Assembly: GCA_013289695.1 (NCBI GenBank)
Contig: JABCZK010000003.1
Location: 1-64,000 of the forward strand
Direction: 5' to 3'
Length of the DNA: 64,000 nucleotides
Source: Acidobacteriota bacterium
GTDB taxonomy: Bacteria; Acidobacteriota; Terriglobia; Acidiferrales; UBA7541
In this document: positions 3,705 through 16,564 of the stretch, piece by piece
Layout: the number at the start of each line of letters is the position of its first letter
How positions within the stretch are numbered: the stretch's first letter is position 1
Position numbers and translations under genes: made by a program
The notes under the pieces: model-generated
What the model was told of the DNA's origin: nothing
Seen by the model: only the letters and a program-made list of their open reading frames with translations
Database searches by the model: none

Positions 3705-4042
3705 AAAAGCCTGTACAACCTAGTGGGCCCAGTCTTGTTTGACCAGTCCGTGGGAGGTTCCGTCAAACAAGGTGCCAATAGCAATTGCGTTCAAAGGGCA
3801 TTTCATTCAGCGCCTTGTCCAATCGAACGCAGCTGAACGGGTCGTCCTCATCCGAATAGGGCATTTGAAGCGTACTACTGACGAGAGGTTTCGGGCTAAA
3901 TACGGGAACTCTGTAACTAGTCCCGGATCACGACTCTAAGGTTGTGAAGGACCGCAGCATGTTGCTGTATCTTTCCGACTTTGTGTGCAGCCGGCTGCGG
4001 TTGCGCTCGCGAGCGAATAAAGTCGAATCGCTGGAGGTCCAT
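3705..4042 (+). other. Intergenic stretch, no convincing gene
   Basis: This region separates the deoxyribosyltransferase-like gene from msrB. A 66-codon frame at 3739-3939 has no family resemblance or ribosome-binding site. A TGTAAC hexamer occurs at 3912-3917 but lacks the downstream element seen at the other TGTAACTTT sites. I see nothing else in it. Confidence 0.5.
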
Positions 4043-4651
4043 ATGTTTTCATTGAATCGAAAAGAGGATGAGCTTCCAAGGGCAATGGGTCGTCGCTCAT
4101 TCTTGATCGGTGCTGGTGCGGTGGCCGCCGCGCTTGCCTTCGGGTACGTTCGGAGCAGTGAGCCAGCACGTGCCTCGGCAGCGGCCGCAGATCTTCCGAG
4201 GAAGGTCTCGATCGTAGAGTTTTCAGATTCAGGCCAGCGCAAAACGGTGGAGTCCCTTGGCACTATCATAAAAACTGAAGCCGAGTGGAGGAAGCAGCTC
4301 TCCGAGGATTCGTTTGAAGTCACGCGACATGCAGCTACCGAGCGCCCCTACACGAATGAAAATCCGAACGAACACGCGAAAGGCGTTTTTCGCTGCATTT
4401 GCTGCGACACGGCCTTGTTCGATTCCAGCACCAAGTTCGAGTCTGGCACGGGCTGGCCAAGCTTTTGGGAGCCGATTGCGAAGGAGAATATTCTGGAAAC
4501 CACTGACAAGAGTTTCGGTATTGTGCGAACGGCAGTTTCCTGTCGGCGCTGTGACGCGCATCTAGGGCATGTATTCGACGATGGGCCTCCCCCGACGGGT
4601 TTGCGCTACTGCATGAATTCTGTGGCGATGAGATTCGCGGCAGCTTCGTAG
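4043..4651 (+). CDS. msrB: Exported peptide-methionine (R)-S-oxide reductase MsrB
   Basis: MsrB reduces the R-epimer of methionine sulfoxide in proteins. Start 4043 was chosen because GGAGG sits just upstream; the frame is open further 5'. Residues 15-40 form a twin-arginine signal (GRRSFLIGAG followed by an Ala-rich hydrophobic stretch), so the enzyme probably acts outside the cytoplasm. The MsrB domain follows: zinc-binding pairs CICC and CRRC, substrate-pocket GTGWPSFW, HLGHVFDDGP, and the catalytic Cys in RYCMNS with an Ala-rich tail. Nothing is truncated. The molybdenum-dependent MsrP at 25178 is also Tat-exported, so this genome region encodes two independent repair enzymes for extracytoplasmic Met-sulfoxide. 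Confidence 0.95.
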   Translation: MFSLNRKEDELPRAMGRRSFLIGAGAVAAALAFGYVRSSEPARASAAAADLPRKVSIVEFSDSGQRKTVESLGTIIKTEAEWRKQLSEDSFEVTRHAATERPYTNENPNEHAKGVFRCICCDTALFDSSTKFESGTGWPSFWEPIAKENILETTDKSFGIVRTAVSCRRCDAHLGHVFDDGPPPTGLRYCMNSVAMRFAAAS

Positions 4652-4991: not shown

Positions 4992-5279
4992 ATGTCCGTT
5001 CCGTATCTGCGAGAGGCCGCCGCCGAGGACGATCTCGGAAAGCTGGTGCGATTCGTTCGTTTGCACCTCGGCGACGGCAACGAAGCCGTGGGCAAGGAAG
5101 AGATCGACCGGTCGTGGGCCGAAGCCGTAAAAATCCTGCTTCGCGACGCAGAGGTGGACCGCGAATTCATCGCCCGGGTTCTGGAGGCGAACGAATCAAC
5201 TCTGGCCCTCCTTTTCTTTCATCTGCATTTTTATTTCATCCGCAGGTCCGGGAGGTGGATTCATGACGGCAGCCGATAA
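4992..5279 (+). CDS. Small protein translationally coupled to the GrdB-like selenoprotein
   Basis: This 95-residue, mostly helical protein (LREAAAEDDLGKLVRFVRLHLGDG...) is preceded by GAGGGAG at normal spacing. Its last 17 nt overlap the start of the GrdB-like gene, so the two are almost certainly co-translated. I do not recognise the family. It has an aromatic stretch (LALLFFHLHFYF) near residues 73-84. The tight coupling suggests a partner subunit or accessory protein of the selenoprotein next door, which is inference only. Confidence 0.7.
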   Translation: MSVPYLREAAAEDDLGKLVRFVRLHLGDGNEAVGKEEIDRSWAEAVKILLRDAEVDREFIARVLEANESTLALLFFHLHFYFIRRSGRWIHDGSR

Positions 5280-6108
5280 GAACACTTTGTCCGCAGCCGA
5301 CCCGCGCGAGGCTGGGACACAGCTGCGGCCGGGCCTCTGGCAGACCATCAACGAGCGCTACCCCGGCTCCATGATTCGCAAAGAGAGCTTCGTGCCTCAG
5401 GCGCGATTGGGAAAGCCGCTGGCAGCATGCCGGCTGACGCTGGTGAGTTCCTGCGGCGTGCATCTGAAGACCGAACAGCCTCTGGATGTCTGCCATCCCT
5501 TCGGCGACTTCCGTTTCATGCGCGTGCCTTCCGGCGCGAAGCACGATGAGCTGATCATTCATCAGTTGAAATACCCTCACGACGATGCAGACCTCGACAT
5601 TAACGTGATCTTTCCGATCGAACGTCTTCAGGAACTCTGCGAGGAAGGGCGCCTGCGCAGGTTGGCTCCGAATTTCTTCAGTTTTATCGGCTACAACATG
5701 GACCCCGAGAAATTCGAGCGAACTGTTGCTGCGAGTATTGCGGAAGCGGTCGTGCAAGAGGAGCGCGCCGATTGCGCGTTACTGGCGCCCGCTTGACCGA
5801 TCTGTCATCAGTCCGTCGGACTGATCCAGAGAGCCATTGAAGCGCGCGGTGTGCCCACGGTATCCATCACGGTAGCGCGCGACGTTACAGAGGCAATCAA
5901 AGTTCCGCGTGCATTGTTTCTTCCCTGGCCGATGGGTCATCACTTTGGCGCGCCCTTTCATCGCGAGCTGCAGCGCCGCGTTGTGCTGGCCGCGTTGGGT
6001 ATGCTGGAGTCCAGCGAAGAACCCGGTACGATACGGGATCTCCCGATCAAGTGGGCAGACGTTCGCCGTGAGGCCAAAACACTCACCGAGCAAGGGCGGA
6101 AGCTCTAG
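5263..6108 (+). CDS. GrdB/PrdB-like reductase-family selenoprotein, in-frame UGA = Sec178
   Basis: A 281-residue protein is obtained if the TGA at 5794-5796 is read as selenocysteine; the frame then stays open to TAG at 6106-6108. Both halves belong to the glycine/sarcosine/betaine/D-proline reductase selenoprotein B family. Before the UGA: SSCGVHLKTEQP, HQLKYPHDDADLDINVIFPIERL, LLAPA. After it: U-PIC-HQSVGLIQRAIEARGVPTVSITVARDVTEAIKVPRALFLPWPMGH. The motif is U178-P-I-C181, at the Sec/Cys site of the family. A perfect hairpin follows (5807-5825). Classical PrdB/GrdB reductively cleave C-N bonds of amino acids using Sec and a partner subunit with a pyruvoyl group; no such partner is visible here, so the substrate is unknown. 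RBS GGGAGGTGG precedes the ATG, and the start overlaps the 95-residue gene. An automated caller would split it into 5263-5796 and 5851-6108. Confidence 0.92.
5801..5830 (+). promoter_or_regulatory. Predicted bacterial SECIS hairpin of the GrdB-like gene
   Basis: ATCAGTCC (5807-5814) pairs perfectly with GGACTGAT (5818-5825), leaving a 3-nt loop GTC. TCTG (5801-5804) pairs with CAGA (5827-5830) below a small internal loop. The loop begins after 18 nt from the end of the TGA at 5794-5796. A G/U-containing apical loop at roughly this distance is what SelB recognises in known bacterial SECIS elements. Confidence 0.8.
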
Positions 6109-6245
6109 CGTCGCGTGCCGCGCCATTCCGGATCGCTCACGAACGGCGAGGGATTCTATCGTCGGCGTGACTGATTTTTTTGCACGGTGCCTGAACAAGT
6201 ACTTCGCCGAAAAGCGCCGATGGGAGGAACGGCTCTCGAAATTCG

Positions 6246-7139
6246 TTAGCGCAATACTTCAAGCGCCCGCCTGGCTATCTGTTCTCCGCACTCCTGCACG
6301 AAGTGCCCTCCTTCGGCCAATTCCATCGGCGGTGGGCAATTGCGAATCTGCTCGCGCAAGTATTTCATTGCGGGAGCTCCCAATACGGGGTCTTTCATGC
6401 CCACGGCCATGAACGCCGGTCCATCCCACTGCGTGTTCCACCAACGCCGCGCGCGCCGCGACAGCTCGGCTCCCTCCGCAGAGGGGTTGTCCGGCACGAT
6501 CATGGGAAAGCGGCGCACTCCTGCTTTGTGCCGTGTATCCGGAAACGGCGCGGCATATGCGGCGCATTCCTCGGGCGACAATGTCTCGCACGCCCGCGCC
6601 AGCAACTTGGCGACATCGAGGTCCGGATTGTTCGCCACAAACTTCCGCCATGCAAGGAATCCCGCTCCCAGCGGAAGGTCCCCAGTAGCCAGCGCGGTGT
6701 TCATGACTAACAGCCGTGCGAATCGTCCGGGCATGTCCATCGGCAACGTCAAACCCAGCAACCCGCCCCAGTCCTGGCAAACCAGCGTAATATTCCGCAA
6801 GTCCAACTGCTCGACGAACCGCCGCAGCATCTCGCGGTGAAATGTAAACGTGTAAACTGCCTCGTCTATCGGCTTTTCCGACTTCCCAAAGCCGATGAAA
6901 TCCGGCGCCACGGAGCGGTGCCCCGCCGCCGTAAACACCGGAATCATTTTCCGATAGAGATAGCTCCACGTTGGTTCGCCGTGCAGGCAAAGAAATACCT
7001 GCTTGGATTGCGGCGGGCCTTCATCCAGATAATGAATACGGATACCTTCGTATCCGGGCAAATTCTCAAGATAGCGGGGGGCAAAGGCAAAACCCGGCAA
7101 ATTCGCAAAGCGTTCTTCCGGCGTCCTCAGAATTTCCAT
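6246..7139 (-). CDS. Haloalkane dehalogenase-like alpha/beta hydrolase
   Basis: This 297-residue cytoplasmic alpha/beta hydrolase closely resembles subfamily-I haloalkane dehalogenases. Visible features are the oxyanion segment LHGEPTWSYLYR, the FIGFGKSEKP loop, nucleophile motif CQDWGG (Asp followed by the halide-binding Trp), the acid in VGMKDPVLG and the catalytic His in EGGHFVQE. Length is normal for the family. Such enzymes hydrolyse C-halogen bonds to alcohol plus halide. Epoxide hydrolases are close relatives, so the activity is a strong suggestion, not proof. It lies downstream of the UGSC selenoprotein and the thioredoxin-domain fusion on the same strand and faces the GrdB-like gene convergently. 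Confidence 0.85.
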   Translation of the reverse strand: MEILRTPEERFANLPGFAFAPRYLENLPGYEGIRIHYLDEGPPQSKQVFLCLHGEPTWSYLYRKMIPVFTAAGHRSVAPDFIGFGKSEKPIDEAVYTFTFHREMLRRFVEQLDLRNITLVCQDWGGLLGLTLPMDMPGRFARLLVMNTALATGDLPLGAGFLAWRKFVANNPDLDVAKLLARACETLSPEECAAYAAPFPDTRHKAGVRRFPMIVPDNPSAEGAELSRRARRWWNTQWDGPAFMAVGMKDPVLGAPAMKYLREQIRNCPPPMELAEGGHFVQECGEQIARRALEVLR

Positions 7140-7266
7140 CTCGTCCCCTGCAATCGGATTTTTCCCTCCGGCGGCCAGCAGGTGATCGTCCGCAGGCGCT
7201 TCTTGCTTGCGGTTTGAGGCAGCGAGATCCTTGCGGCAGAAAGGTTAGCTGTGATTCGTTCTTGCC

Positions 7267-7791
7267 CTAAGATTGGGTTAGCCGACCGACAATCTCAAGC
7301 AGCGCAGCATCCGCCCGATCCTCAATTTCCTGCTTGGTTTGATCTTGTATGGGATGCGGCACGTACACCGCATCAAAATCCGGACGATTCAGCGCCGCCG
7401 CCTGGGCACGCGCGGCCGTCTGGAACTCGCCCGTGGCGACGGGTACCGCGGGAACTCCCCAATCCTCCAAATTGATCGTGTCGTGCAAACTGCACGTTGT
7501 GCACGACCCTCAATCGGCCAAGGCTTCGACAACCGCGTCAACGGTCCGAAGCTGTTCTATGATTCCGGGTGGGGCCGGCTTCGCAAACGTCGGCTTCGCC
7601 GTGCGCACGACGTTGGCTACGTGAAATCGCTCGCGGAGCAGCTGCTCCAGTCGATCGAGGAAGAGATTGCCGCCGGTCTTGCTGATATCCAGCAAACCGA
7701 CGGTCTTGCCCTGTAAACTTCGTAGCCGTGCGGGCGGCAACGAGACCCTTAGCGGCGCTTCGTTCATTGGATTGATCAGTTTGGTCGGCAT
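7267..7791 (-). CDS. UGSC-family selenoprotein, in-frame UGA = Sec94
   Basis: A 174-residue protein results if TGA at 7512-7510 is read as Sec. The N-terminal half (MPTKLINPMNEAP, then GKTVGLLDISKTGGNLFLDRLEQLL and an ALAD segment) leads directly into U94-G-S-C97-TTC, then SLHDTINLEDWGVPAVPVATGEF and YVPHPIQDQT. This is the UGSC-motif family that I know from metagenomic selenoprotein surveys; its function is not established, but U-x-x-C implies thiol/selenol redox chemistry. Start 7791 was chosen for AGGAG 5 nt upstream. A SECIS-like hairpin follows the UGA (7480-7507). It sits between the dehalogenase-like gene and the thioredoxin-fusion gene on the same strand. Standard calling would split it in two (7510-7797 and 7267-7488). 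Confidence 0.93.
7480..7507 (-). promoter_or_regulatory. Predicted bacterial SECIS hairpin of the UGSC gene
   Basis: Read on the minus strand, CGTGCA (7496-7491) pairs with TGCACG (7487-7482) around a 3-nt loop GTT, 19 nt after the UGA (7512-7510). An alternative 8-bp stem GTCGTGCA (7507-7500) with TGCACGAC (7487-7480) shares the same 3' arm and encloses a 12-nt loop. The first form has the same loop size and position as the other three hairpins in this window. Confidence 0.75.
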
Positions 7792-7889
7792 TTGCACTCC
7801 TGTCTCTAGAGTTGTCTTCGCCTTGGAGCAGGCCTTTTAGTTGAAACAGCTTTCACGTTGCGCATCCCAGATCTTCCGCCTGCAAGAGC

Positions 7890-9446
7890 TCAAATGGGAT
7901 AGGTAACCATTTCGCTGCCTCGCGGTCCGGCGGCCCAGCTCCCGATCACCGCAGAAAATTTTCCCGCAGTCCCGCCCGCCACCACGATGCGAATCGAGTC
8001 TGGGGTGCGGAACTTCTGGTAGCAACGTTCTCCGTCGATCAGGATCTCTTTATACTTCGAAACCAGCTGGCTGCCTTCCGCGTCGGGAGCGTTGTCATAG
8101 GCGCGAACCGGCACGCCCGTATTTTCGAACAGGAACTCTCTCGCCCGCAGCTTTGTCCAGCCAGCTCGATCGATGGTTCGCGCATGCTCCGGGCTAAGAA
8201 CGACAACCGCCTCCGAGCCAAGGCAGGCCCGATACGTCCAGACCGTTGCAAGCGCGTAGGAAATGGATTTCAAGACCTGTTCGGGCGCTCGCGCGGTGTG
8301 CTCGCTGACGCCATGCGGCGCTTCCGCGGCGAACAGCGTCAAGGCGCTCTGCTGGCGTTGAAACCCACGCTCGACGTGGAACGGCTCCCACGGATTCGCT
8401 TCCTCATGCTCGGCGATGCAGTAGCAAAACTTGCCCGGATTTCCCAAGGTGGACATATCAATTGCATCGGGCCGCGCGCCGCCGATGTTCAGCAATATCA
8501 GCTGCAGCGCGCGCCCGAGCGTGCTGTTAGCTCGAGCCACGTTGCTGAAGGCATTTTGACGGTAAGCGAACCCCAGCTCATTCCGAATGGGACCGTTGAT
8601 GATGACCAGCGGCGCCGCAAAGTGCGTCGTCGCTTGTACACCGTGGATGTTGAGCCGTTCATCGCAAACCGCCCGAACCAACGGCAGCAAGACTCGCATC
8701 ATGTTTGGAAGGCACCCCGCCATTACGGCGTTTGCAGCGATCTTCTCGACGGTGGCTTCACCATAGCAGGGCGGCACTCGTGCAATAACTTCGTTCGGGT
8801 TCACCGCGGCACCGCTCAACATGCGTGCGATACGCTCCGGCGTAGGGGGGATCACCGGCAGTGCGTCGCCAAAAGTCTGGAAGCAATACTCGAATAGATC
8901 TTCCCCGTCCGGAACTTCGATTACCGAAGCCGGAACGCCGCGGCTGAAGCTAACGGGAGGCGCTGGCCCGAATTCTTCTTCGACCTTCGGTTCGAGATGT
9001 CGTGACATGCAACCGGGCTTGCTCTGCGGAGCGCCGTCGAAATCCTCGGCGACCGGCGGGCATCGCATCTGGGTTGCAATCTCATTGAGCACGGCCTTGT
9101 CGAACCCGAAATGTGACCGCAGGACGCGACCGTTGTGATCGATCAGAAACAGCGAGGGCACGAACGTCAGATCGAAGCGACGGGACAGTGCCAAGCCGGA
9201 ATCTCGTTGCACCGGGAAGGCCGTCGCTAGTTGTTGCGTGAACTGGTTCGTCGCTGCCTGGTCATCCTGGGAAATGCCGATCACTCGCGCTCCACGAGCC
9301 AGTTTGTTCAGGTAGGGAACGGCCAGTCGGCACGTCGGGCAGTCCGTTTCGAAGAACACGATGAGCGCGGCGTCGCTCCCCAGATCGAGTCCAGGTATCG
9401 CGGGCGCGGTTTGGCCGATGTCGAGCACGGTACTAGGGTATCGCAA
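7890..9446 (-). CDS. Thioredoxin/TlpA-like domain fused to an unrecognised domain
   Basis: A 518-residue protein. Residues 8-130 form a redoxin/TlpA-like domain (IGQTAPAIPGLDLG, FFETDCPTC with C36/C39, ISQDDQ, FDLTFVPSLFLID). Residues from about 175 to the end are a second domain that I cannot place. It has several conserved-looking Cys (RVPPCYGEAT, MAGCLP, KFCYCIAEHEE) and a Gly-rich C-terminus (VVAGGTAGKFSAVIGSW). No signal peptide or membrane segment is seen. The start is a TTG at 9446 without a clear ribosome-binding site, and a GTG six codons in is an alternative. It is transcribed towards the UGSC selenoprotein with a 98-bp gap, so the CPTC domain could reduce that selenoprotein (inference). 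Confidence 0.8.
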   Translation of the reverse strand: MRYPSTVLDIGQTAPAIPGLDLGSDAALIVFFETDCPTCRLAVPYLNKLARGARVIGISQDDQAATNQFTQQLATAFPVQRDSGLALSRRFDLTFVPSLFLIDHNGRVLRSHFGFDKAVLNEIATQMRCPPVAEDFDGAPQSKPGCMSRHLEPKVEEEFGPAPPVSFSRGVPASVIEVPDGEDLFEYCFQTFGDALPVIPPTPERIARMLSGAAVNPNEVIARVPPCYGEATVEKIAANAVMAGCLPNMMRVLLPLVRAVCDERLNIHGVQATTHFAAPLVIINGPIRNELGFAYRQNAFSNVARANSTLGRALQLILLNIGGARPDAIDMSTLGNPGKFCYCIAEHEEANPWEPFHVERGFQRQQSALTLFAAEAPHGVSEHTARAPEQVLKSISYALATVWTYRACLGSEAVVVLSPEHARTIDRAGWTKLRAREFLFENTGVPVRAYDNAPDAEGSQLVSKYKEILIDGERCYQKFRTPDSIRIVVAGGTAGKFSAVIGSWAAGPRGSEMVTYPI

Positions 9447-9558
9447 ACTTGCCTACGCACGCTGCCTGCCAACCCAACGCGGGCGCCCGACAAGGCGGCG
9501 GCCGGAAGCATGCGAATACGCATGTCGCAAAACTTGCCGATGGAGATCCTTCGGGTTT

Positions 9559-10350
9559 TCAGTCCTTCTGCCTAAAATTGTCGAGAAATTCCTCCACAGC
9601 CAGCCAGTTTTCCGATTCGCCGGCGCGATTTTTGTCCTCGCGCAACGTCGAAGATCCGTGCACACCGGCAATGTGCGGAACAAACTGAGTCTTTTGTCGC
9701 GCGGGCGCAACGGCGAGGATGGACTTGGCGGCCGCGATCTCGGTCCGGTCTTTTGCCGAAGTCACAAAGATGGGAACAGAGACTTTGGCGGCGGCATCAT
9801 GCACGGCATCGGAAGCGTCGAGGTACTCGCCTGGAGAAAAAGCGAGCACGCCGGCGACCTCTTGCTGGTGTTCGGCGGCAAGAAGAAAAACCAGAGCTGC
9901 CGAATAGCTGCTGCCCCACACCAGGACTTTGCCGTTGTTTCCGGAGGACCTTGCCCACGCCAGACTGGCTTCCAGGTCCTTAAGGGCGTCCGAGTAGTTT
10001 CCGTTATGGCCGACGTGGCCCACGGTTTCGTTCTCTTGGCCCCACAGGCCACCGCCGGAGCGTTGATCGATGGCGAGGCAGTTGAAGCCCAGTTTGACCA
10101 ATCGCGGGGCGATGGGCGCGTACTCAGCGCGATTCGAGCCAGCTTGGTGGAACAACAGAATGTAAGGCTGCGAATTGCCGCCGGCAGGGTAGAAGTCGGC
10201 ATACACTTTGACACCATCGGAGGCCGTGATCGTCACCTGCTTCTGGGCATACACCGGCAGCGCCAAACCGATGATTACGAAGAGAAGCGGACACAAGACT
10301 GCAGGCAGCCATTTTCTCGAGAAGCAGCTCGTTTTTGGATGATTCCTCAA
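9559..10350 (-). CDS. Exported dienelactone-hydrolase-like alpha/beta hydrolase
   Basis: An alpha/beta hydrolase of about 263 residues with an N-terminal signal/anchor (WLPAVLCPLLFVIIGLALPVYAQ). The catalytic core shows the nucleophile elbow VWGSSYSAAL (GxSxxxA), FHQAGSNRAEYAPIAPRL and a His in AGVHGSSTL. I placed the start at a TTG (10350) preceded by AAGGAAG; the frame is open to 10401. It is the most upstream member of the same-strand series leading to the thioredoxin fusion, UGSC protein and dehalogenase-like enzyme. A peptidase-like or acyl-esterase role outside the cytoplasm is plausible; the substrate is unknown. Confidence 0.75.
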   Translation of the reverse strand: MRNHPKTSCFSRKWLPAVLCPLLFVIIGLALPVYAQKQVTITASDGVKVYADFYPAGGNSQPYILLFHQAGSNRAEYAPIAPRLVKLGFNCLAIDQRSGGGLWGQENETVGHVGHNGNYSDALKDLEASLAWARSSGNNGKVLVWGSSYSAALVFLLAAEHQQEVAGVLAFSPGEYLDASDAVHDAAAKVSVPIFVTSAKDRTEIAAAKSILAVAPARQKTQFVPHIAGVHGSSTLREDKNRAGESENWLAVEEFLDNFRQKD

Positions 10351-10510
10351 AGGCTGAATTCTTCCTTTCCGGTGTCGCACCCTGTTCCAAGCAGCTTGCA
10401 AAGCGCTGCCCGCAATCTTCGATGATCGGCCTGGAGAATTGTTTCAGCGAAACACATATGGGGCCGAAACGGGCGCAAACCCGCTAGCCGATTTGAAGTC
10501 AAAGAATCAC

Positions 10511-10537
10511 TGTAACTTTATTCCCCATTCCTAATCC
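10511..10537 (+). promoter_or_regulatory. Putative ECF-type promoter of the DUF1223 gene
   Basis: TGTAACTTT (10511-10519), followed 15 nt after the TGTAAC hexamer by TAATCC (10532-10537), lies about 55 bp before the DUF1223 start. The same spacing with GAATCT occurs upstream of the EthD gene (2546) and of the broken gene at 24852 (24797), and a weaker copy precedes the ECF sigma gene (27044). Confidence 0.35.
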
Positions 10538-10590
10538 AACGACTGGGGCGCAGAGCTTCATCCAGGGACATTATCAAAAAGGAGAGCCAC

Positions 10591-11403
10591 ATGCTACGTG
10601 TCAGATTTGTGTTTGCGGGAATAGCCGCGATGCTGCTTCTAGGCATATTCCTGCTGCCCCGAGTGCAAGCCACGGGTGGAACCGGACGCCCGGCGAATGA
10701 CAGTGCCCAACGCACTCCGGTACTTGTGGAACTGTTTACCTCGGAGGGATGTTCGGATTGCCCGCCCGCTGATGCGCTGCTGGAAAGATTAGACCGATCG
10801 CAACCTGTGAGCGGCGCCGAGCTGATCGTCCTTAGCGAACACGTGGACTACTGGAACGACATCGGATGGAAGGATCCCTTCTCTAGTCACGAATACAGCG
10901 AAAGGCAAGGCAGTTACGCGGGGCAGTTTGGCCTGGGGAGCGTCTATACGCCGCAGATGGTCGTGGACGGGCGCATCCAGCTCATAGGCAGCGACGAGAG
11001 AGGGGCGATCCAGGCGATCGAAAACGCAACCAAGGCCGAAAAGATACCAGTGAATCTTTCTTCGATCCATTTCGACGGCCAGAAGATTCTCTTGCACATT
11101 GAGACTGGCACGTTGCCTTCCTCAATCTCAGAGAGGTTCGCGAACGTCTTGCTCGCGATAGCCGACGAGAGCGATCAATCGAACGTGAGCCGCGGAGAGA
11201 ACGCCGGAAGGACCCTCAAGCACGTCGCGGTCCTGCGAGACCTTGTCCGAGTTGGAGCGCTGGATCGGTCCGGCAAATTTTCTCAGGATGTCGCCATCAA
11301 TTCCAATCACGGCAACAAGGGGAATTTGAGGATCGTCGCGATCGTTCAGGAACCGACAGCGGGAAGAGTATTAGGAGTGGGCTCGGCTCGGCTTTCGAAC
11401 TAG
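10591..11403 (+). CDS. DUF1223 thioredoxin-fold secreted protein
   Basis: A 270-residue DUF1223 protein. Residues 1-28 are a signal peptide or anchor (FVFAGIAAMLLLGIFLLPRVQA). The family signature is intact: VLVELFTSEGCSDCPPADALL with a C-x-x-C pair, VLSEHVDYWNDIGWKDPFSSHEYSERQ, and VYTPQMVVDG. The fold is thioredoxin-like, and a redox or disulfide role is generally assumed but unproven. RBS AAAGGAGAG precedes the ATG. It is the first gene of the redox series leading to the U-redoxin, DoxX and U-OsmC genes. Confidence 0.88.
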   Translation: MLRVRFVFAGIAAMLLLGIFLLPRVQATGGTGRPANDSAQRTPVLVELFTSEGCSDCPPADALLERLDRSQPVSGAELIVLSEHVDYWNDIGWKDPFSSHEYSERQGSYAGQFGLGSVYTPQMVVDGRIQLIGSDERGAIQAIENATKAEKIPVNLSSIHFDGQKILLHIETGTLPSSISERFANVLLAIADESDQSNVSRGENAGRTLKHVAVLRDLVRVGALDRSGKFSQDVAINSNHGNKGNLRIVAIVQEPTAGRVLGVGSARLSN

Positions 11404-11476
11404 CCTCGACGGTGCTCCGCATCGTTATTGGCTAAGTTGTTACGACGGTACTTCTCATTTCGAATTGCGAGGGAGA

Positions 11477-12547
11477 ATGCGATTAGGCGTGGCAGTTTTA
11501 TTGATTTTTGGTTTCCTCGGCTTCGGAAAGAAGCAAGACGATCCATCGAGCAAGCAGACCGTTTCGCCCGCTATCGGACTGCAGGTTGGGCAACACGCGC
11601 CGACCTTCACAGCGCACGATCAGTTTGGCCATGCCGCATCAAATGAAACGTTGCGCGGAACCAACGGAACGATACTTCTTTTCTTCCGATCCGCGGACTG
11701 GTGACCCTTCTGCAAAGCGCAGCTGGTCCAGCTGCAAAACGCGAAACAAAGATTTGAGCAGCATGGGATCCAGCTGGCTGCGATCAGCTACGACAGCCCG
11801 GCCATACTGCAGGACTTCGCCGAGCGCCACAAGATCGAGTTTCCACTGTTGGCCGACCCCGATTCCGAGATCATTCGGAGGTTCAACGTCTTAAATACAC
11901 AGGCGTCCGGAATGAATAAGGGAATGGCGCACCCTGGGTTCTTCTATATAGACTCGAGCGGCGTGGTTCGTGAGAAATACTTTGAAACGAAGTATACCGA
12001 TCGATTTACACCCAACAACGTAATCGACAAGCTGTTTCCCGAACTAAGCGAGGAAGTCAGCCGGGACGTCGACGCGCCACATCTTCGGCTCACGCTGGAG
12101 CAATCGGACAAGGACGTGATCTCGGGTAGCCGGGTGAGCTTCGTTGCACAAATCGAGCTTCCACCCAAAGTCCATGTCTATTCTCCGGGAGTGCAAGGCT
12201 ATAAGCCGATTCAGCTAACGTTGAATCCAGTCGCCGGAATTGAATTCGCACCCGTCGCTTATCCAAGCTCTAAGACTCTGTACCTGGAAGCCATTCAGGA
12301 ACATGTCCCAGTGTTCGAGGGAAAATTTCGGATCACGCAAGATGCGACGGTAACCGTTTCAAAGGTGCAAGATATCGCCCGCGCGCTGGTTTCTGCCGGG
12401 AAGACGATTTCGATCAGCGGGGAACTAAAGTATCAGGCATGTGACGACAGGGTTTGCTATCCACCGACATCTGTGCCGGTAATGTGGAGCTTGCAGGTTC
12501 TCCCGCTCGATCTCAAACGATCGCCTGAGGAGATTCGGCACAAGTAA
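11477..12547 (+). CDS. Exported redoxin-nDsbD-like fusion selenoprotein, UGA = Sec76
   Basis: A 356-residue protein is obtained if TGA at 11702-11704 is Sec. Residues 1-20 are a hydrophobic export signal. Residues 37-190 form an AhpC/TSA-type redoxin domain: GQHAPTFTAHDQFG, LLFFRSADW-U76-P-F-C79-KAQLVQLQ, then YDSPAILQDFAERHKIEFPLLADPDSEIIRRF and HPGFFYIDSSGVVREKYF. Homologues normally carry CPYC here, so the UGA lies exactly at the resolving/peroxidatic Cys. Residues about 205-345 resemble the DsbD N-terminal (alpha) domain, including YQACDDRVCYPP. Together this suggests an extracytoplasmic thiol peroxidase or disulfide reductase receiving electrons through its own nDsbD-like domain. The ATG at 11477 follows AGGGAG; a TTG at 11465 is also in frame. 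A hairpin with GTC loop follows the UGA. Confidence 0.93.
11719..11735 (+). promoter_or_regulatory. Predicted bacterial SECIS hairpin of the redoxin gene
   Basis: GCAGCTG (11719-11725) pairs perfectly with CAGCTGC (11729-11735) around a 3-nt GTC loop. The loop begins after 21 nt from the end of the UGA at 11702-11704. The loop sequence is identical to that of the GrdB-like gene's hairpin although the encoded residues differ. Confidence 0.78.
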
Positions 12548-12571
12548 AATTGGATCAGGTCTTGCACTCGA

Positions 12572-13120
12572 ATGGCAATCGATACCAGAAACCGAAACTC
12601 GATAGTCCTCGCGGCGCTTCGAATCTCCGTCGGAGCGCTCTTTCTGATTTTTGGCGAGTACAAGGTCCTTGGCACTCACTTCACCTTGGGTGGCGGCTTC
12701 CAATTCTGGATCAACCAGTTCCTGGTGGAAGGCGCTTACCCATTTATGGTTCCCGTGCTTCAGAAATTCGTATTGCCTCACGCCACCGCCATAGCATTTC
12801 TCGTCGCTTATGGAGAGTTGGCGATTGGTCTCGCGCTCATTTGCGGCATTCTCGTCCGTCCGGCCAGCATTTGCGGGCTCGTCTATATGGTGAGCTTGCT
12901 GTTTTCTTCAAACTACCCTGGACCAGGAGCTGCCTTCTGGCAATATTTCGGGGCCTCTCTTGACCATTCTGTGCTCGCTCTTTGCTTTGCTGTATTCATT
13001 TTCGGAGAAGCAGATCGAGTCCTATCGATTCGCTCTTACTTGCCAATGATCGTCAGAGAGCGAAAAACTTCAGCCACCGACTCTTGCCTGGAGAGTTCCC
13101 GGAAGGGAGAGACGAAGTAG
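12572..13120 (+). CDS. DoxX-family membrane protein
   Basis: A 182-residue integral membrane protein of the DoxX/DoxD type with four hydrophobic segments (LAALRISVGALFLIFGEYKVLG; ATAIAFLVAYGELAIGLALICGIL; SICGLVYMVSLLF; HSVLALCFAVFIFG). The GELAIGLALICGI segment is the DoxX hallmark. It lies 24 bp after the seleno-redoxin gene and 22 bp before the seleno-OsmC gene, so the three very likely form one operon. DoxX proteins accompany thiosulfate/quinone or detoxification redox systems; here it may link the selenoproteins to the quinone pool (inference). Confidence 0.88.
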   Translation: MAIDTRNRNSIVLAALRISVGALFLIFGEYKVLGTHFTLGGGFQFWINQFLVEGAYPFMVPVLQKFVLPHATAIAFLVAYGELAIGLALICGILVRPASICGLVYMVSLLFSSNYPGPGAAFWQYFGASLDHSVLALCFAVFIFGEADRVLSIRSYLPMIVRERKTSATDSCLESSRKGETK

Positions 13121-13142
13121 CTGACCCTTAAAGGAGGAGAGC

Positions 13143-13616
13143 ATGAGCGATGTCGTGTACATCTCAAAGTCGCGTATCGAACGGAAGCAGGGACCCGTCC
13201 GCATTGCATATTTGCCGGGTGAGTCTCAGCCAGTGATTTTCAGTGTCCACGGAGCCATCGCCGAACACTACAAAGTGAACCCTGCGACGCTGAAGGAGTC
13301 GCACTCGTCAACGATCGACTACGTCATCTCCGCAACCGCAGGTTGAATGATGGGTACCTTCGGAGGCGCGCTGGAAGCGCGCCAAATCGACGCCAGCAAT
13401 GGACGCTTGACCGCGGACGTCAAGGGGGAAGTGGAATCGGAGGATGGCGTACTGGTCATCCGGCGAATCCATGTGGCCATGCGCTTAGTCGCGGGGGAAG
13501 AGGCCAGAGCGACGGTAGAGCGCGTGCATGGGATTTATGCGATGCATTGCCCTCTCTACCGCACTCTGCACAATGCAATCCAACTTACATCTTCATTCGA
13601 CCTTGTGGGCGGCTAG
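13143..13616 (+). CDS. OsmC-family selenoprotein, UGA = Sec68
   Basis: A 157-residue OsmC/Ohr-like protein is obtained if TGA at 13344-13346 is read as Sec; the downstream frame continues without interruption to TAG. Residues 54-67 (TLKESHSSTIDYVISATAG) and 69-80 (MMGTFGGALEARQI) flank the UGA exactly as the first redox Cys is flanked in OsmC proteins (ATAGC-x-x-GTLGGALEAR). The second redox Cys (C136, IYAMHCPLYR) is retained. OsmC/Ohr proteins reduce hydroperoxides, and a Sec/Cys pair would form a selenylsulfide. RBS AAAGGAGGAGAG precedes the ATG, 22 bp after the DoxX gene. Gene callers would give two adjacent fragments (13143-13346 and 13347-13616). Confidence 0.93.
13365..13383 (+). promoter_or_regulatory. 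Predicted bacterial SECIS hairpin of the OsmC gene
   Basis: GGCGCGCT (13365-13372) pairs perfectly with AGCGCGCC (13376-13383) around a GGA loop, 26 nt after the UGA at 13344-13346. The loop starts with G, as in known bacterial SECIS loops, although U is replaced by G at the second position compared with the other three. Confidence 0.7.
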
Positions 13617-13894: not shown

Positions 13895-14203
13895 ATGACA
13901 AAGAATAAAAAGGCTTTAGTGGCAGGGGCTGCGCTCGCGGGTTTGCTCGCGGGCACTAGCGCAACGATCCAGGCATCCAACCTCCTCCCTGGGCTGCACT
14001 CTTCAATCGCAGCGCAGGACCAATCTCAGGACCAGGACAAGGTGAAGGAAAAGCACGCTTGCAAGGGTCAAAACTCTTGCAAGGGCAAAGGTGGATGTAA
14101 GGCGAGCGACAACGGCTGCAAAGGCAAGAACTCTTGCAAGGGCAAGGGCGGCTGCGCGACCGACGGGTCCAAACCTCCACAGAGCAATTCCTCTCAAGCG
14201 TAA
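13895..14203 (+). CDS. Bufferin-type Cys-rich RiPP precursor
   Basis: A 102-residue precursor peptide with a Sec-type signal (KALVAGAALAGLLAGTSATIQA) and a core with repeated Cys motifs: ACKGQNSCKGKGGC, then DNGCKGKNSCKGKGGC. This is the pattern of BufA-like precursors encoded next to DUF692 (MNIO) enzymes, whose cysteines are converted to heterocyclic copper-binding groups and which buffer periplasmic copper. The next genes, DUF692, DUF2063 and DoxX, are the expected partners. RBS is weak (GGACA). A TGTAAC box at 13854 lies about 40 bp upstream. The Cys spacing (C-x5-C-x5-C, repeated) gives two similar half-repeats. Confidence 0.88.
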   Translation: MTKNKKALVAGAALAGLLAGTSATIQASNLLPGLHSSIAAQDQSQDQDKVKEKHACKGQNSCKGKGGCKASDNGCKGKNSCKGKGGCATDGSKPPQSNSSQA

Positions 14204-14239
14204 TTTGTAACGGATGTTGTTCTCCCATGGGAGTTGGGT

Positions 14240-14270
14240 GGGCCGGTGAGTTTCGCCGGCCCTTCTTTAT
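14240..14270 (+). terminator. Attenuator-like terminator between precursor and DUF692 genes
   Basis: GGGCCGG (14240-14246) pairs with CCGGCCC (14256-14262) followed by TTCTTTATT. A CTCCCATGGGAG palindrome lies just upstream at 14223-14234. Partial termination here would let the precursor be made in excess over its modifying enzyme. Confidence 0.65.
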
Positions 14271-14289
14271 TCGAGTGGACGGAGATTTG

Positions 14290-15141
14290 ATGCCCGCCAA
14301 CGCTTTTAACAATTTTACCGAGTACGGCATCGGGATCGGATTGCGCTCCCCGCACTACCACCACATTCTTACGCGCAAGCCCGTGGTGGATTGGTTCGAA
14401 ATCATATCCGAGAATTTCATGATCGATGGCGGACGCCCTCTGCGAATCCTCGATCAGATCCTGGAACAGTACAAAGTCGTACAGCACGGCGTGTCGATGT
14501 ACTTCGGGTCAGCCGAATCCGCGAACCGCGAACACCTCCGTCGCTTGAAAGAACTGGTAAGACGAACCAAGACCCCGTGGCTCACGGATCATCTCTGTTG
14601 GGGCAGTGTAGACGGGCGGTACACGCATGACCTGCTTCCAATGCCCTACACGTTTGAAGCTGCGAAAATCACGGCGCAGAAGATCCGGGAAGTCCGCGAC
14701 TTCCTCGAAGTACCTATCGCCGTTGAAAACGTAAGCAGTTACGCCGAATTTCACGTCTCCGAGATGACCGAATGGGAATTCTTGACGGAAGTTGTCGAGC
14801 GCGCGAATTGCGGAATTCTACTAGACGTGAATAACATCTACGTTTCGTCCCAGAACCACAACTTCAATCCGAGCACTTATATTTCGGAGATCCCCGCGAG
14901 CCGCGTCGCTCAGATCCACATTGCAGGCCATTCGAAATATAGAAAATACATTCTCGACACGCACGACCATCCGGTCATCGATCCGGTTTGGGAGCTATAC
15001 GCCCAGGCGATCCAGCGTGCCGGTCACACTGCGACCCTCCTGGAATGGGACGACAGCATTCCTTCGTTTCAGGAAGTCCACGACGAAGCCTTAAAGGCAA
15101 ACAAGTTTCTCGCGACCGAGTCGCTGGCTGCTGCCGTATGA
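14290..15141 (+). CDS. DUF692-family MNIO enzyme (BufB-like)
   Basis: A 283-residue TIM-barrel multinuclear non-heme iron oxygenase family (DUF692). Start 14290 was chosen for GGAG upstream and the family N-terminus (GIGIGLRSPHYHHIL). Typical segments are VDWFEIISENFM, HGVSMYFGSAE, DHLCWGS, PIAVENVSSYAEF, GILLDVNNIYVSS, HIAGHS and LDTHDHPV, which carry the His/Asp/Glu/Asn metal ligands. Known members oxidise Cys residues of a precursor peptide; the precursor here would be 13895-14203. The stop overlaps the next start (ATGA), so it is coupled to the DUF2063 gene. Confidence 0.93.
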   Translation: MPANAFNNFTEYGIGIGLRSPHYHHILTRKPVVDWFEIISENFMIDGGRPLRILDQILEQYKVVQHGVSMYFGSAESANREHLRRLKELVRRTKTPWLTDHLCWGSVDGRYTHDLLPMPYTFEAAKITAQKIREVRDFLEVPIAVENVSSYAEFHVSEMTEWEFLTEVVERANCGILLDVNNIYVSSQNHNFNPSTYISEIPASRVAQIHIAGHSKYRKYILDTHDHPVIDPVWELYAQAIQRAGHTATLLEWDDSIPSFQEVHDEALKANKFLATESLAAAV

Positions 15142-16064
15142 ACCTTATGAGTTTGCAACGCCAAATGACTCGCGCCGTTATGATGCCTCTCACTCCGCGC
15201 GAGGGTATGCGCCGGGTCAGTTCGAATGGGCGATCCATGCGCGCCATAGCCGCTGCATTCATTAAGCCGAACGATCGGCTGACTTCCTTTGACCGCTTGG
15301 AGATTTACAATAGGCAATACTGGTTCCGGATTTTGTCTAGCTTAGCAGAGGATTTTCCCGGACTGCGGGCCGTGCTCGGCGACAGCCGCTTCGATTTATT
15401 GGCCCAAGCCTATTTGTCCGCGCGCCCATCCCGTTCCTTTACACTGCGCAATCTCGGTTCGCGATTGGAAGGATGGCTTCGAAAGTACCCCACTTGCGCG
15501 GGATCGCGCCTGAAGTTAGCACTGGACATGGTCCGGCTCGAGTGGGCCCATATCGAAGCATTCGACGGCAAAGCAGAATTGCCGCTCACCGCGGAAGATC
15601 TCGTAGGAGCCGACCCGTCGAAGCTGCGGTTGCGGCTTCAGCCATATATCCAATTGCTGGACTTGCGGCATCCCGTGGACGACTTGCTACTCGAGTTCAG
15701 AAATGACCGTAACACTACTTTCGCTAGTAACGCATTCGAAGAGCTCCGGAAGCGGAAACGCCTCCGCGCGATCGCGCGACTGAAACCCACTGCGATCTTC
15801 CTCGCAGTGCATCGCTTGGACTTTTCCCTATATTTCCGCCGCCTGCTTCGCGAGGAATTCATCATCCTAACCCAACTGCGCGCTGGCGAAACCCTCAGGC
15901 GAGCAGTCGAGTCTGCCTTTCGTGAGAGCTCAATCGCCGTAGCGGAGCGCCCTTCTTGTGTTCAGCATTGGTTTCAGACTTGGGCAACGCTCGGGTGGTT
16001 CTGTCAGGCCGACAAAAACGAAATTCCGTCCCAAATCCGAATCCGAGAGGACAACGAAATATGA
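15138..16064 (+). CDS. DUF2063-domain partner protein (BufC-like)
   Basis: A 308-residue protein with an N-terminal DUF2063 putative DNA-binding domain (LQRQMTRAVM, SFDRLEIYNRQYWFRILSSLAEDFPGLRAVLGDSRFDLLAQAYLSARPSRSFTLRNLG). In MNIO systems this protein forms a complex with the DUF692 enzyme and is thought to present the precursor (RRE-like C-terminal part). The ATG overlaps the DUF692 stop by 4 nt, and its own stop overlaps the DoxX start. The C-terminal half is rich in Arg/Leu and less conserved. Confidence 0.88.
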   Translation: MNLMSLQRQMTRAVMMPLTPREGMRRVSSNGRSMRAIAAAFIKPNDRLTSFDRLEIYNRQYWFRILSSLAEDFPGLRAVLGDSRFDLLAQAYLSARPSRSFTLRNLGSRLEGWLRKYPTCAGSRLKLALDMVRLEWAHIEAFDGKAELPLTAEDLVGADPSKLRLRLQPYIQLLDLRHPVDDLLLEFRNDRNTTFASNAFEELRKRKRLRAIARLKPTAIFLAVHRLDFSLYFRRLLREEFIILTQLRAGETLRRAVESAFRESSIAVAERPSCVQHWFQTWATLGWFCQADKNEIPSQIRIREDNEI

Positions 16065-16564
16065 ATCACATATTGGGTCTAATCCGGAAGCTCCATAGCT
16101 TGTTCGTTACAATTGCTTGCCGCTTGCAGTCACCGTTTCTTGCGATCGTCCGCCTCTACTGGGGCTGGCAAATCGCGCAGAACGGCTGGGGAAAACTTCA
16201 CAATCTAGCGCACGTGACCGAATTCTTCGCGAGTTTAAACTTGCCTGCACCCGGACCGACCGCTACGTTCGTCGCCACCTTTGAATTTCTAGGTGGAATC
16301 CTTCTTGCCATCGGATTGCTCTCGCGCATCGCCGCATTAGGCCTTGTGATTGACATGACGACCGCATACATCACAGCCGACCGTGAAGCGTTCTTATCGT
16401 TTTTCGCAGACCCGGGCAAATTCTATAACGCCGATCCCTTTATCTTTCTCTTCATCGGATTGTTGATACTGATTTTTGGGCCTGGCAAGCTTTCTGCGGA
16501 CGCTTTGGCACGACGTTTCGTAGCCGGGCCGACAGCTCGGGTAGCGAGCATGTCTGCAATCTGA
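16061..16564 (+). CDS. DoxX-family membrane protein of the bufferin operon
   Basis: A 167-residue DoxX protein with four membrane segments: FLAIVRLYWGWQIAQNGWGKL, ATFVATFEFLGGILLAIGLLSR, AALGLVIDMTTAYI and PFIFLFIGLLILIFG. ATG at 16061 overlaps the DUF2063 stop and has GAGAGGA upstream; the frame runs further 5' inside the previous gene. A DoxX protein is the usual last member of bufferin clusters. It is distinct in sequence from the DoxX at 12572. Confidence 0.9.
   Translation: MNHILGLIRKLHSLFVTIACRLQSPFLAIVRLYWGWQIAQNGWGKLHNLAHVTEFFASLNLPAPGPTATFVATFEFLGGILLAIGLLSRIAALGLVIDMTTAYITADREAFLSFFADPGKFYNADPFIFLFIGLLILIFGPGKLSADALARRFVAGPTARVASMSAI

What the first reader, a model, noticed from the sequence alone, without database searches (positions are those of the whole stretch)
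4992..13616. A selenoprotein island: four genes with in-frame UGA at active-site cysteines
Four separate genes in 8.6 kb, on both strands and from four unrelated redox families, each have a UGA exactly where homologues carry the catalytic Cys, with uninterrupted homologous sequence on both sides. All four UGAs are followed by a perfect stem (6-8 bp) with a 3-nt loop: GTC, GTT, GTC and GGA, starting 18, 19, 21 and 26 nt after the UGA. The stem sequences are unrelated, but loop size and position agree, as expected for SelB-read SECIS elements. Four independent sequencing errors or mutations at precisely the redox residue are very unlikely. Few selenoproteins of this kind have been described from Acidobacteriota, to my knowledge, and I do not know of this set as a described cluster.
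Basis: partly seen in the sequence, partly recalled or inferred. Interest (0 to 1): 0.93.

Follow-up and report, generated by a model that had tools for sequence, protein, structure and literature searches.

The report
Four-gene selenoprotein island in an acidobacterium
A bacterium of the Acidobacteriota carries, within 8.6 kb, four genes whose internal UGA codon likely inserts selenocysteine at the redox site of each protein, and one of them belongs to a poorly understood family that one groundwater bacterium carries in at least 85 copies, nearly all of them predicted to contain selenium.

Summary
Four genes in 8.6 kb have one in-frame UGA at the redox site: a PrdB-like reductase, a UGSC-family protein, a peroxiredoxin-like protein and an OsmC-like protein. 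The genome encodes selA, selB, selD and tRNA-Sec. Among 50 genomes at least 90% complete with a UGA form, none lacks selA; of 9 genomes with only sense forms 7 lack it, and the sense codon is Cys at the exact site. The PrdB-like hairpin covaries. All four families were known selenoproteins. The island is three operon modules brought together. New, as far as my searches reach: UGSC has an unannotated partner domain, fused or adjacent in 60 of 80 loci, and aligns weakly, Sec on Sec, with PrdB-like proteins. The family is strongly expanded: 5-16 copies in 12 of 20 genomes of this genus, and 85 in one groundwater Chloroflexi genome, 84 with in-frame TGA, above the largest selenoproteome in a 2026 review (63). 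In that last genome no tRNA-Sec was found and selA was not searched.

The parts
4992..5279 (+). orf95: small conserved protein overlapping the start of the PrdB-like gene; no family match
   Evidence: orf95-PrdB order kept in G002 at 83% identity each; no Pfam/NCBIfam hit at E 0.01
5263..6108 (+). PrdB-like reductase subunit, 281 aa, motif U-P-I-C, in-frame UGA at 5794-5796 (residue 178)
   Evidence: TIGR04483 134.5 bits, below its cut-off of 300
5807..5825 (+). SECIS-like hairpin, 8 bp, loop GTC
   Evidence: covariation in 25 sequences
6246..7139 (-). haloalkane dehalogenase-type alpha/beta hydrolase inside the island, no UGA
   Evidence: NF002043 360.9 bits, cut-off 265
7267..7797 (-). UGSC-family protein, 176 aa, UGA at 7512-7510 (residue 96)
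   Evidence: PF24696 150.8 bits (cut-off 25), NF041046 151.2 (cut-off 125)
7482..7496 (-). SECIS-like hairpin, 6 bp, loop GTT
   Evidence: family-wide signal
7890..9446 (-). TlpA/redoxin domain (DCPTC motif) fused to the unannotated partner domain; directly upstream of the UGSC gene and ends in an ordinary TGA stop
   Evidence: same gene pair in G139, G111, G179
9559..10401 (-). alpha/beta hydrolase, no UGA
10591..11403 (+). DUF1223 protein upstream of Prx
   Evidence: order DUF1223-Prx-OsmC kept in G015 and G062
11465..12547 (+). peroxiredoxin/TlpA-like domain with U-P-F-C fused to a DsbD_N domain, hydrophobic leader seen by eye; UGA at 11702-11704 (residue 80)
   Evidence: AhpC-TSA 102.8 bits (cut-off 26), DsbD_N 35.8 (cut-off 25)
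11719..11735 (+). SECIS-like hairpin, 7 bp, loop GTC (weakest of the four on its own)
12572..13120 (+). DoxX membrane protein between Prx and OsmC
13143..13616 (+). OsmC-like protein, 157 aa, U-M-M-G-T, UGA at 13344-13346 (residue 68), second likely redox Cys in AMHCPLY
   Evidence: PF02566 41.9 bits (cut-off 27.5)
13365..13383 (+). SECIS-like hairpin, 8 bp, loop GGA

Best explanation
Four neighbouring genes each carry one in-frame UGA at the redox site that the genome's own SelA, SelB, SelD and tRNA-Sec are predicted to read as selenocysteine, guided by a hairpin just behind the UGA, giving likely selenoproteins in three operon modules. Shown: the UGAs, the hairpins, the machinery genes, retention of UGA in relatives, and Cys at the site where selA is missing and the codon is sense. 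Inferred: that SelB binds these hairpins and that the proteins contain selenium. Module 1, DUF1223-Prx(Sec)-DoxX-OsmC(Sec), likely works in or near the cell envelope: a selenolate thiol/peroxide enzyme fused to a DsbD_N domain that would feed it electrons, with an OsmC-type peroxidase. Module 2, orf95-PrdB-like(Sec), and module 3, TlpA/partner-UGSC(Sec), are likely selenium-dependent reductases. In module 3 the TlpA-type domain would reduce the UGSC selenolate, and the partner domain would bind the substrate. The substrate is not known.
For: Machinery: selB 361.9 bits, selA 557, selD 368.6, all over cut-off, and tRNA-Sec 63.1 bits with anticodon tca. UGA kept: OsmC has matches in 56, the PrdB-like protein in 34 and Prx in 59 of 201 genomes, most rows that cover the site with one TGA. 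selA test: 0 of 50 genomes at least 90% complete with a TGA form lack selA; 7 of 9 genomes with only sense forms lack it. The sense codon is TGC at the exact site in 6 of 6 Prx and 5 of 5 OsmC sense forms read from selA-less genomes, and Cys in the 3 PrdB-like sense forms. Covariation of the PrdB-like hairpin: 85.5% of cells paired against 75.5 in shuffles, 15 cells changed on both sides against 3.6. UGSC-type sites: z -1.33 against -0.17, n = 129, P = 2e-13. UGSC proteins of Natrialba and an Archaeoglobi genome have CGSC. Three of 3 truncated UGSC database entries read stop exactly before the UGA, at ALAD. Module synteny; UGSC and partner fused or side by side in 60 of 80 loci.
Against: Nothing shows translation or selenium. 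Five genomes have a TGA form without a detected selA (G012, G051, G054, G088, G152; 71-85% complete). Two genomes with selA have only a sense form (G126, G199). The Prx hairpin alone is not significant (P = 0.17), and in the genus g1 set of UGSC genes the hairpin signal is weak (n = 22, P = 0.088). Of 7 full-length UGSC database entries read, 3 have Cys at the site but 2 have Gly, 1 Trp and 1 Arg, each reachable from TGA by one base change. The Cys OsmC proteins are only 31-35% identical to the query, another subfamily rather than Sec/Cys swaps of one orthologue. The enzyme roles rest on domain content: 19 of 80 partner loci have no UGSC, sequence searches found no credible solved structure for UGSC, partner or PrdB-like protein (redoxin-domain hits only for the 518-aa gene), and the partner fold was not identified.
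Confidence: 0.92

Rival explanations
1. The UGAs are true stops: the four genes are truncated or decaying, and the downstream frames are remnants.
For: UGA is an ordinary stop elsewhere in the window, for instance at the end of the 518-aa gene at 7890. Single hairpins are only modestly unusual.
Against: Conserved sequence on both sides in relatives down to about 30% identity with one TGA in the match. In the held stretches of one distant genome 61 of 63 distinct UGSC domains have the UGA at the same site and none has one elsewhere in the domain. The codon is TGC in the sense forms of genomes without selA.
Confidence: 0.03
2. UGA is read as a sense codon in general in this genome (alternative code), not as selenocysteine.
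For: Frames are open across UGA.
Against: One TGA per gene, at the redox residue. The neighbouring 518-aa gene ends in TGA. A tRNA-Sec with the tca anticodon and selA, selB, selD are present.
Confidence: 0.01
3. The proteins are selenoproteins, but the neighbourhood is a chance assembly of three redox modules with no joint pathway (compatible with the best explanation).
For: Modules occur separately: UGSC pair without the others in G139, G111, G179; Prx-OsmC without the others in the stretches of G012, G015, G062; orf95-PrdB without them in G002. The window genes lie on both strands.
Against: OsmC and PrdB-like genes lie about 3 to 16 kb apart in three places in G131 and once in G175.
Confidence: 0.6

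Closest known systems
UGSC-containing selenoprotein and its UGSC/Unknown_1 fusion (GOS survey 2008, PMC2398784; PF24696, NF041046)
   Same: The window protein passes both curated cut-offs. The fusion with a second domain was reported in 2008 (passages read; its Figure S1 not seen).
   Different: In the window the two parts are separate genes and the partner carries a TlpA domain. No function or expansion is described in the passages I read.
PrdB, D-proline reductase selenoprotein subunit (TIGR04483)
   Same: UPxC motif and overall alignment (residues 48-264, 134.5 bits).
   Different: Well below the equivalog cut-off (300); no PrdA-type hit among the 10 island genes scanned.
OsmC-like selenoprotein (PMC2398784, PMC13188914; passages)
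   Same: OsmC family with Sec at the first redox position.
   Different: The published motif is UxxT; here it is U-M-M-G-T (UxxG).
Prx-like UxxC selenoproteins (PMC2398784; passages)
   Same: AhpC/TSA domain with UPFC.
   Different: Fused to a DsbD_N domain, in an operon with OsmC.
Known multi-selenoprotein operons: glpC-hdrA-frhD-frhA, SAO, Tso (PMC13188914; passages read)
   Same: Several selenoprotein genes side by side.
   Different: None of those families is among the hits of the 10 island genes scanned. The Tso paper itself was not held.

Membership tests
UGSC family (PF24696 / NF041046) | score over the curated cut-offs | tested here: met
   150.8 vs 25 and 151.2 vs 125
UGSC family (PF24696 / NF041046) | U-G-S-C motif with UGA as first codon | tested here: met
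D-proline reductase PrdB (TIGR04483) | equivalog score over 300 | tested here: not met
   134.5 bits; called 'PrdB-like' only
D-proline reductase PrdB (TIGR04483) | UxxC with UGA | tested here: met
   UPIC
D-proline reductase PrdB (TIGR04483) | PrdA (pyruvoyl) partner in the genome | not tested
   no such hit among the 10 island genes; the genome was not searched for it
Glycine/sarcosine/betaine reductase GrdB (PF07355) | score over 22 bits | tested here: not met
   PrdB-like protein 16.8 bits
OsmC-like selenoprotein | PF02566 over cut-off | tested here: met
   41.9 vs 27.5
OsmC-like selenoprotein | published motif UxxT | tested here: not met
   U-M-M-G; motif from PMC13188914
Prx-like selenoprotein | AhpC-TSA over cut-off and UxxC | tested here: met
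   102.8 vs 26, UPFC; no NCBIfam Prx subfamily over its cut-off
Bacterial SECIS | hairpin with a small G-containing loop about 16-37 nt after the UGA (model recalled) | tested here: met
   loops start at 18, 19, 21, 26 nt; GTC, GTT, GTC, GGA
Bacterial SECIS | compensatory base changes | tested here: met
   PrdB-like only: 4 of 8 pairs with changes on both sides; not counted for the other three
Bacterial SECIS | binds SelB and drives recoding | not testable with these tools
   needs experiment
SAO / Tso / hdrA-frh-glpC selenoprotein operons | their named families present | tested here: not met
   none among hits of the 10 island genes at E 0.01

The most novel reading that the evidence does not exclude
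UGSC proteins and their unannotated partner domain are one superfamily with the GrdB/PrdB selenoreductases: thioredoxin-driven, substrate-diversified reductases. They have radiated so far that one groundwater Chloroflexi genome encodes at least 84 Sec-containing copies, the largest selenoproteome reported, and sister species of the window organism carry 5-16 copies each. The two-gene TlpA/partner-UGSC operon in this window is the compact form from which the function could be worked out.
Probability: 0.4. Interest if true: 0.85.

Novelty: new variant of a known kind. Interest (0 to 1): 0.6.

Why it matters
The island itself adds a cluster of known selenoprotein families in a lineage that three surveys of the field do not name ('Acidobacteri' occurs 0 times in PMC13188914, PMC2398784 and PMC5029168). 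The larger point is UGSC: a selenoprotein family known since at least 2008, for which I found no function, now has a frequent partner, a likely electron donor (a TlpA domain), a possible kinship with glycine/proline reductases and a scale of expansion above the largest selenoproteome cited in 2026. That makes its function directly testable with a two-gene operon. It also suggests that standard gene calling cuts many such enzymes at the UGA, as in the database entries.
Full report
What is there. Reading the window with UGA as Sec gives four gene frames that are each broken by one TGA only and end at TAA/TAG: 5263-6108 (+), 7267-7797 (-), 11465-12547 (+) and 13143-13616 (+). Pfam and NCBIfam place them as follows: a PrdB-like reductase subunit (TIGR04483 at 134.5 bits, below its cut-off of 300), the UGSC family (PF24696 150.8 bits and NF041046 151.2 bits, both over cut-off), an AhpC/TSA domain fused to DsbD_N (102.8 and 35.8 bits, over cut-off), and OsmC (41.9 bits, over cut-off). 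The UGA stands at UPIC, UGSC, UPFC and AGUMMGT. Each UGA is followed by a hairpin of 6-8 bp with a three-base loop GTC, GTT, GTC or GGA whose loop starts 18, 19, 21 and 26 nt after the UGA. Against synonymous-codon shuffles the four give P = 0.011, 0.011, 0.17 and 0.028.

The machinery. The same genome (4.5 Mb, 87% complete) has selB (361.9 bits), selD (368.6), selA (557) and a tRNA-Sec with anticodon tca, on four different contigs. A second match to the tRNA-Sec model is a tRNA-Ser by ARAGORN. The organism is in the same genus as G008, whose partner domain is identical over 377 aa to one in a record titled Candidatus Acidiferrales bacterium (L031 and L103), so it is an acidobacterium.

The comparative test. 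In 201 genomes (own plus 200 relatives), OsmC has a match in 56, the PrdB-like protein in 34 and Prx in 59 (E up to 1e-20), most of the rows that cover the site with one TGA. selA is over its cut-off in 157 of 201. Of 83 genomes with any TGA form 5 lack selA, all 71-85% complete; among the 50 that are at least 90% complete none does. Of 9 genomes with only sense forms 7 lack selA. Reading those sites gave TGC: 6 Prx and 5 OsmC from genomes without selA, plus one of each from genomes with it; G054, without a detected selA, has TGC in OsmC but TGA in Prx. The three PrdB-like sense forms read CPxC. These genomes are related, so the counts are not independent, but four genera without selA show Cys. 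Two genomes with selA (G126, G199) have a sense form, as would be expected for Cys paralogues.

The hairpin. In 25 PrdB-like genes the stem pairs in 85.5% of cells. Fifteen cells changed on both sides against 3.6 in shuffles, and the covariation score is 0.311 against 0.141; the slid controls are lower on every measure. One measure is not exceptional: further pair types, 10 observed, reached by 52 of 500 shuffles. Five of the 25, the UPLCHRTV forms, do not keep the inner pairs. For UGSC-type genes, the 42 nt after the UGA fold better than synonymous shuffles (mean z -1.33) and better than a control stretch further on (-0.17), n = 129, P = 2e-13. By group this holds in the Chloroflexi genome G201 (n = 60, P = 2e-8, loop start median 18) and in other loci (n = 55, P = 5e-5); it is weak in the window's genus (n = 22, P = 0.088).

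An island of modules. Prx and OsmC are neighbours in G012, G015, G062, G067 and G088 (Prx only in part in the last two), with DUF1223 upstream in G015 and G062. In G062 the cys-rich/MbnB-type module that follows the island in the window lies within the same 20 kb, without the PrdB-like and UGSC genes. orf95-PrdB stands with the cys-rich gene in G002. TlpA/partner-UGSC stands without the others in G139, G111 and G179. So the window brings together three modules. In G131 OsmC and PrdB-like genes lie about 3 to 16 kb apart in three places, and in G175 about 15 kb apart.

UGSC and its partner. The 518-aa gene upstream of UGSC has a TlpA/redoxin domain and a second domain of about 350 aa that no Pfam or NCBIfam model covered. 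A database search with the whole protein gave 6848 matches among 7998 scored candidates, some perhaps by the redoxin domain alone; the 120 listed cover 88-100% of it. In the window's genus the UGSC domain and this domain are fused into proteins of about 600 aa with one TGA. Natrialba asiatica and an Archaeoglobi genome have CGSC at the site; in the Natrialba genome no tRNA-Sec and no selB over cut-off was found. A fusion of UGSC with a domain 'Unknown_1' was reported in 2008 (PMC2398784, passages read); whether it is the same domain I could not see.

Kinship. A profile comparison of 14 UGSC with 16 PrdB-like sequences aligns Sec on Sec (P = 2e-4, probability 45%), and UGSC proteins touch the GrdB-type models around the Sec at E 0.004 to 0.04. 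This is suggestive only. The fused protein folds with high confidence, but the partner has no confident structural relative.

Scale. A search of 28 genomes with PF24696 found 1 copy in the window's genome, 5-16 in 12 of the 19 sister genomes searched and none in 7. G201, the groundwater Chloroflexi genome of the JACPQD records, has 85, of which 84 have in-frame TGA (81 with one, 3 with two) and 1 none; 85 of 208 first-look candidates were scored there. In the stretches of G201 that I held there are 63 distinct UGSC domains with mean pairwise identity 0.30; 61 have U at the site, and none of the domains held has U elsewhere. Its selB is full length; a tRNA-Sec was not found, and selA and selD were not searched. 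A 2026 review gives 63 genes in one genome bin and 57 in a symbiont as the largest bacterial selenoproteomes (PMC13188914, passages read).

Literature. All four families are listed as selenoproteins (passages). A 2006 survey counts 3 families and 4 selenoproteins in Acidobacteria (passages), a 2025 one 3 genes in Occallatibacter (passages). I found no paper describing this cluster or this expansion in ten searches of the held library (listings). The groundwater survey cited by the review (Deng et al. 2026) was not looked up and the Tso operon paper was not held, so prior mention there cannot be excluded.

Noticed in passing
G201 (L130, L135, L223-L237 and others): Groundwater Chloroflexi genome with 85 UGSC-domain genes scored, 84 with in-frame TGA, 11 and 8 of them on two contigs of about 350 kb; motif variants UGGC, UGAC, UGTC besides UGSC.
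   Followed up: partly
L030-L041, L046-L054 (genus of the window): Twelve sister genomes carry 5-16 UGSC genes each, mostly in frames of about 600 aa; three G010 rows and one G007 row have no TGA, and the one read at codon level is TGC.
   Followed up: partly
L042, L043 (G130, G104): Long UGSC relatives with motif U-S-T-C instead of UGSC.
   Followed up: no
window 13895-16564: Cys-rich 102-aa peptide, MbnB/TglH/ChrH-type enzyme (PF05114), DUF2063 and DoxX: a RiPP-type operon directly after the island.
   Followed up: no
window 3944-4651: MsrB (SelR domain) with a twin-arginine-like leader by eye and Cys, not Sec, near the island.
   Followed up: no
G202, G203: Two tRNA-Sec matches of 65-72 bits each; G203 also has two full-length selB genes.
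   Followed up: no
L139, L143 and other Poribacteria loci: Partner domain as a stand-alone protein of about 300 aa with no UGSC gene in the locus.
   Followed up: no
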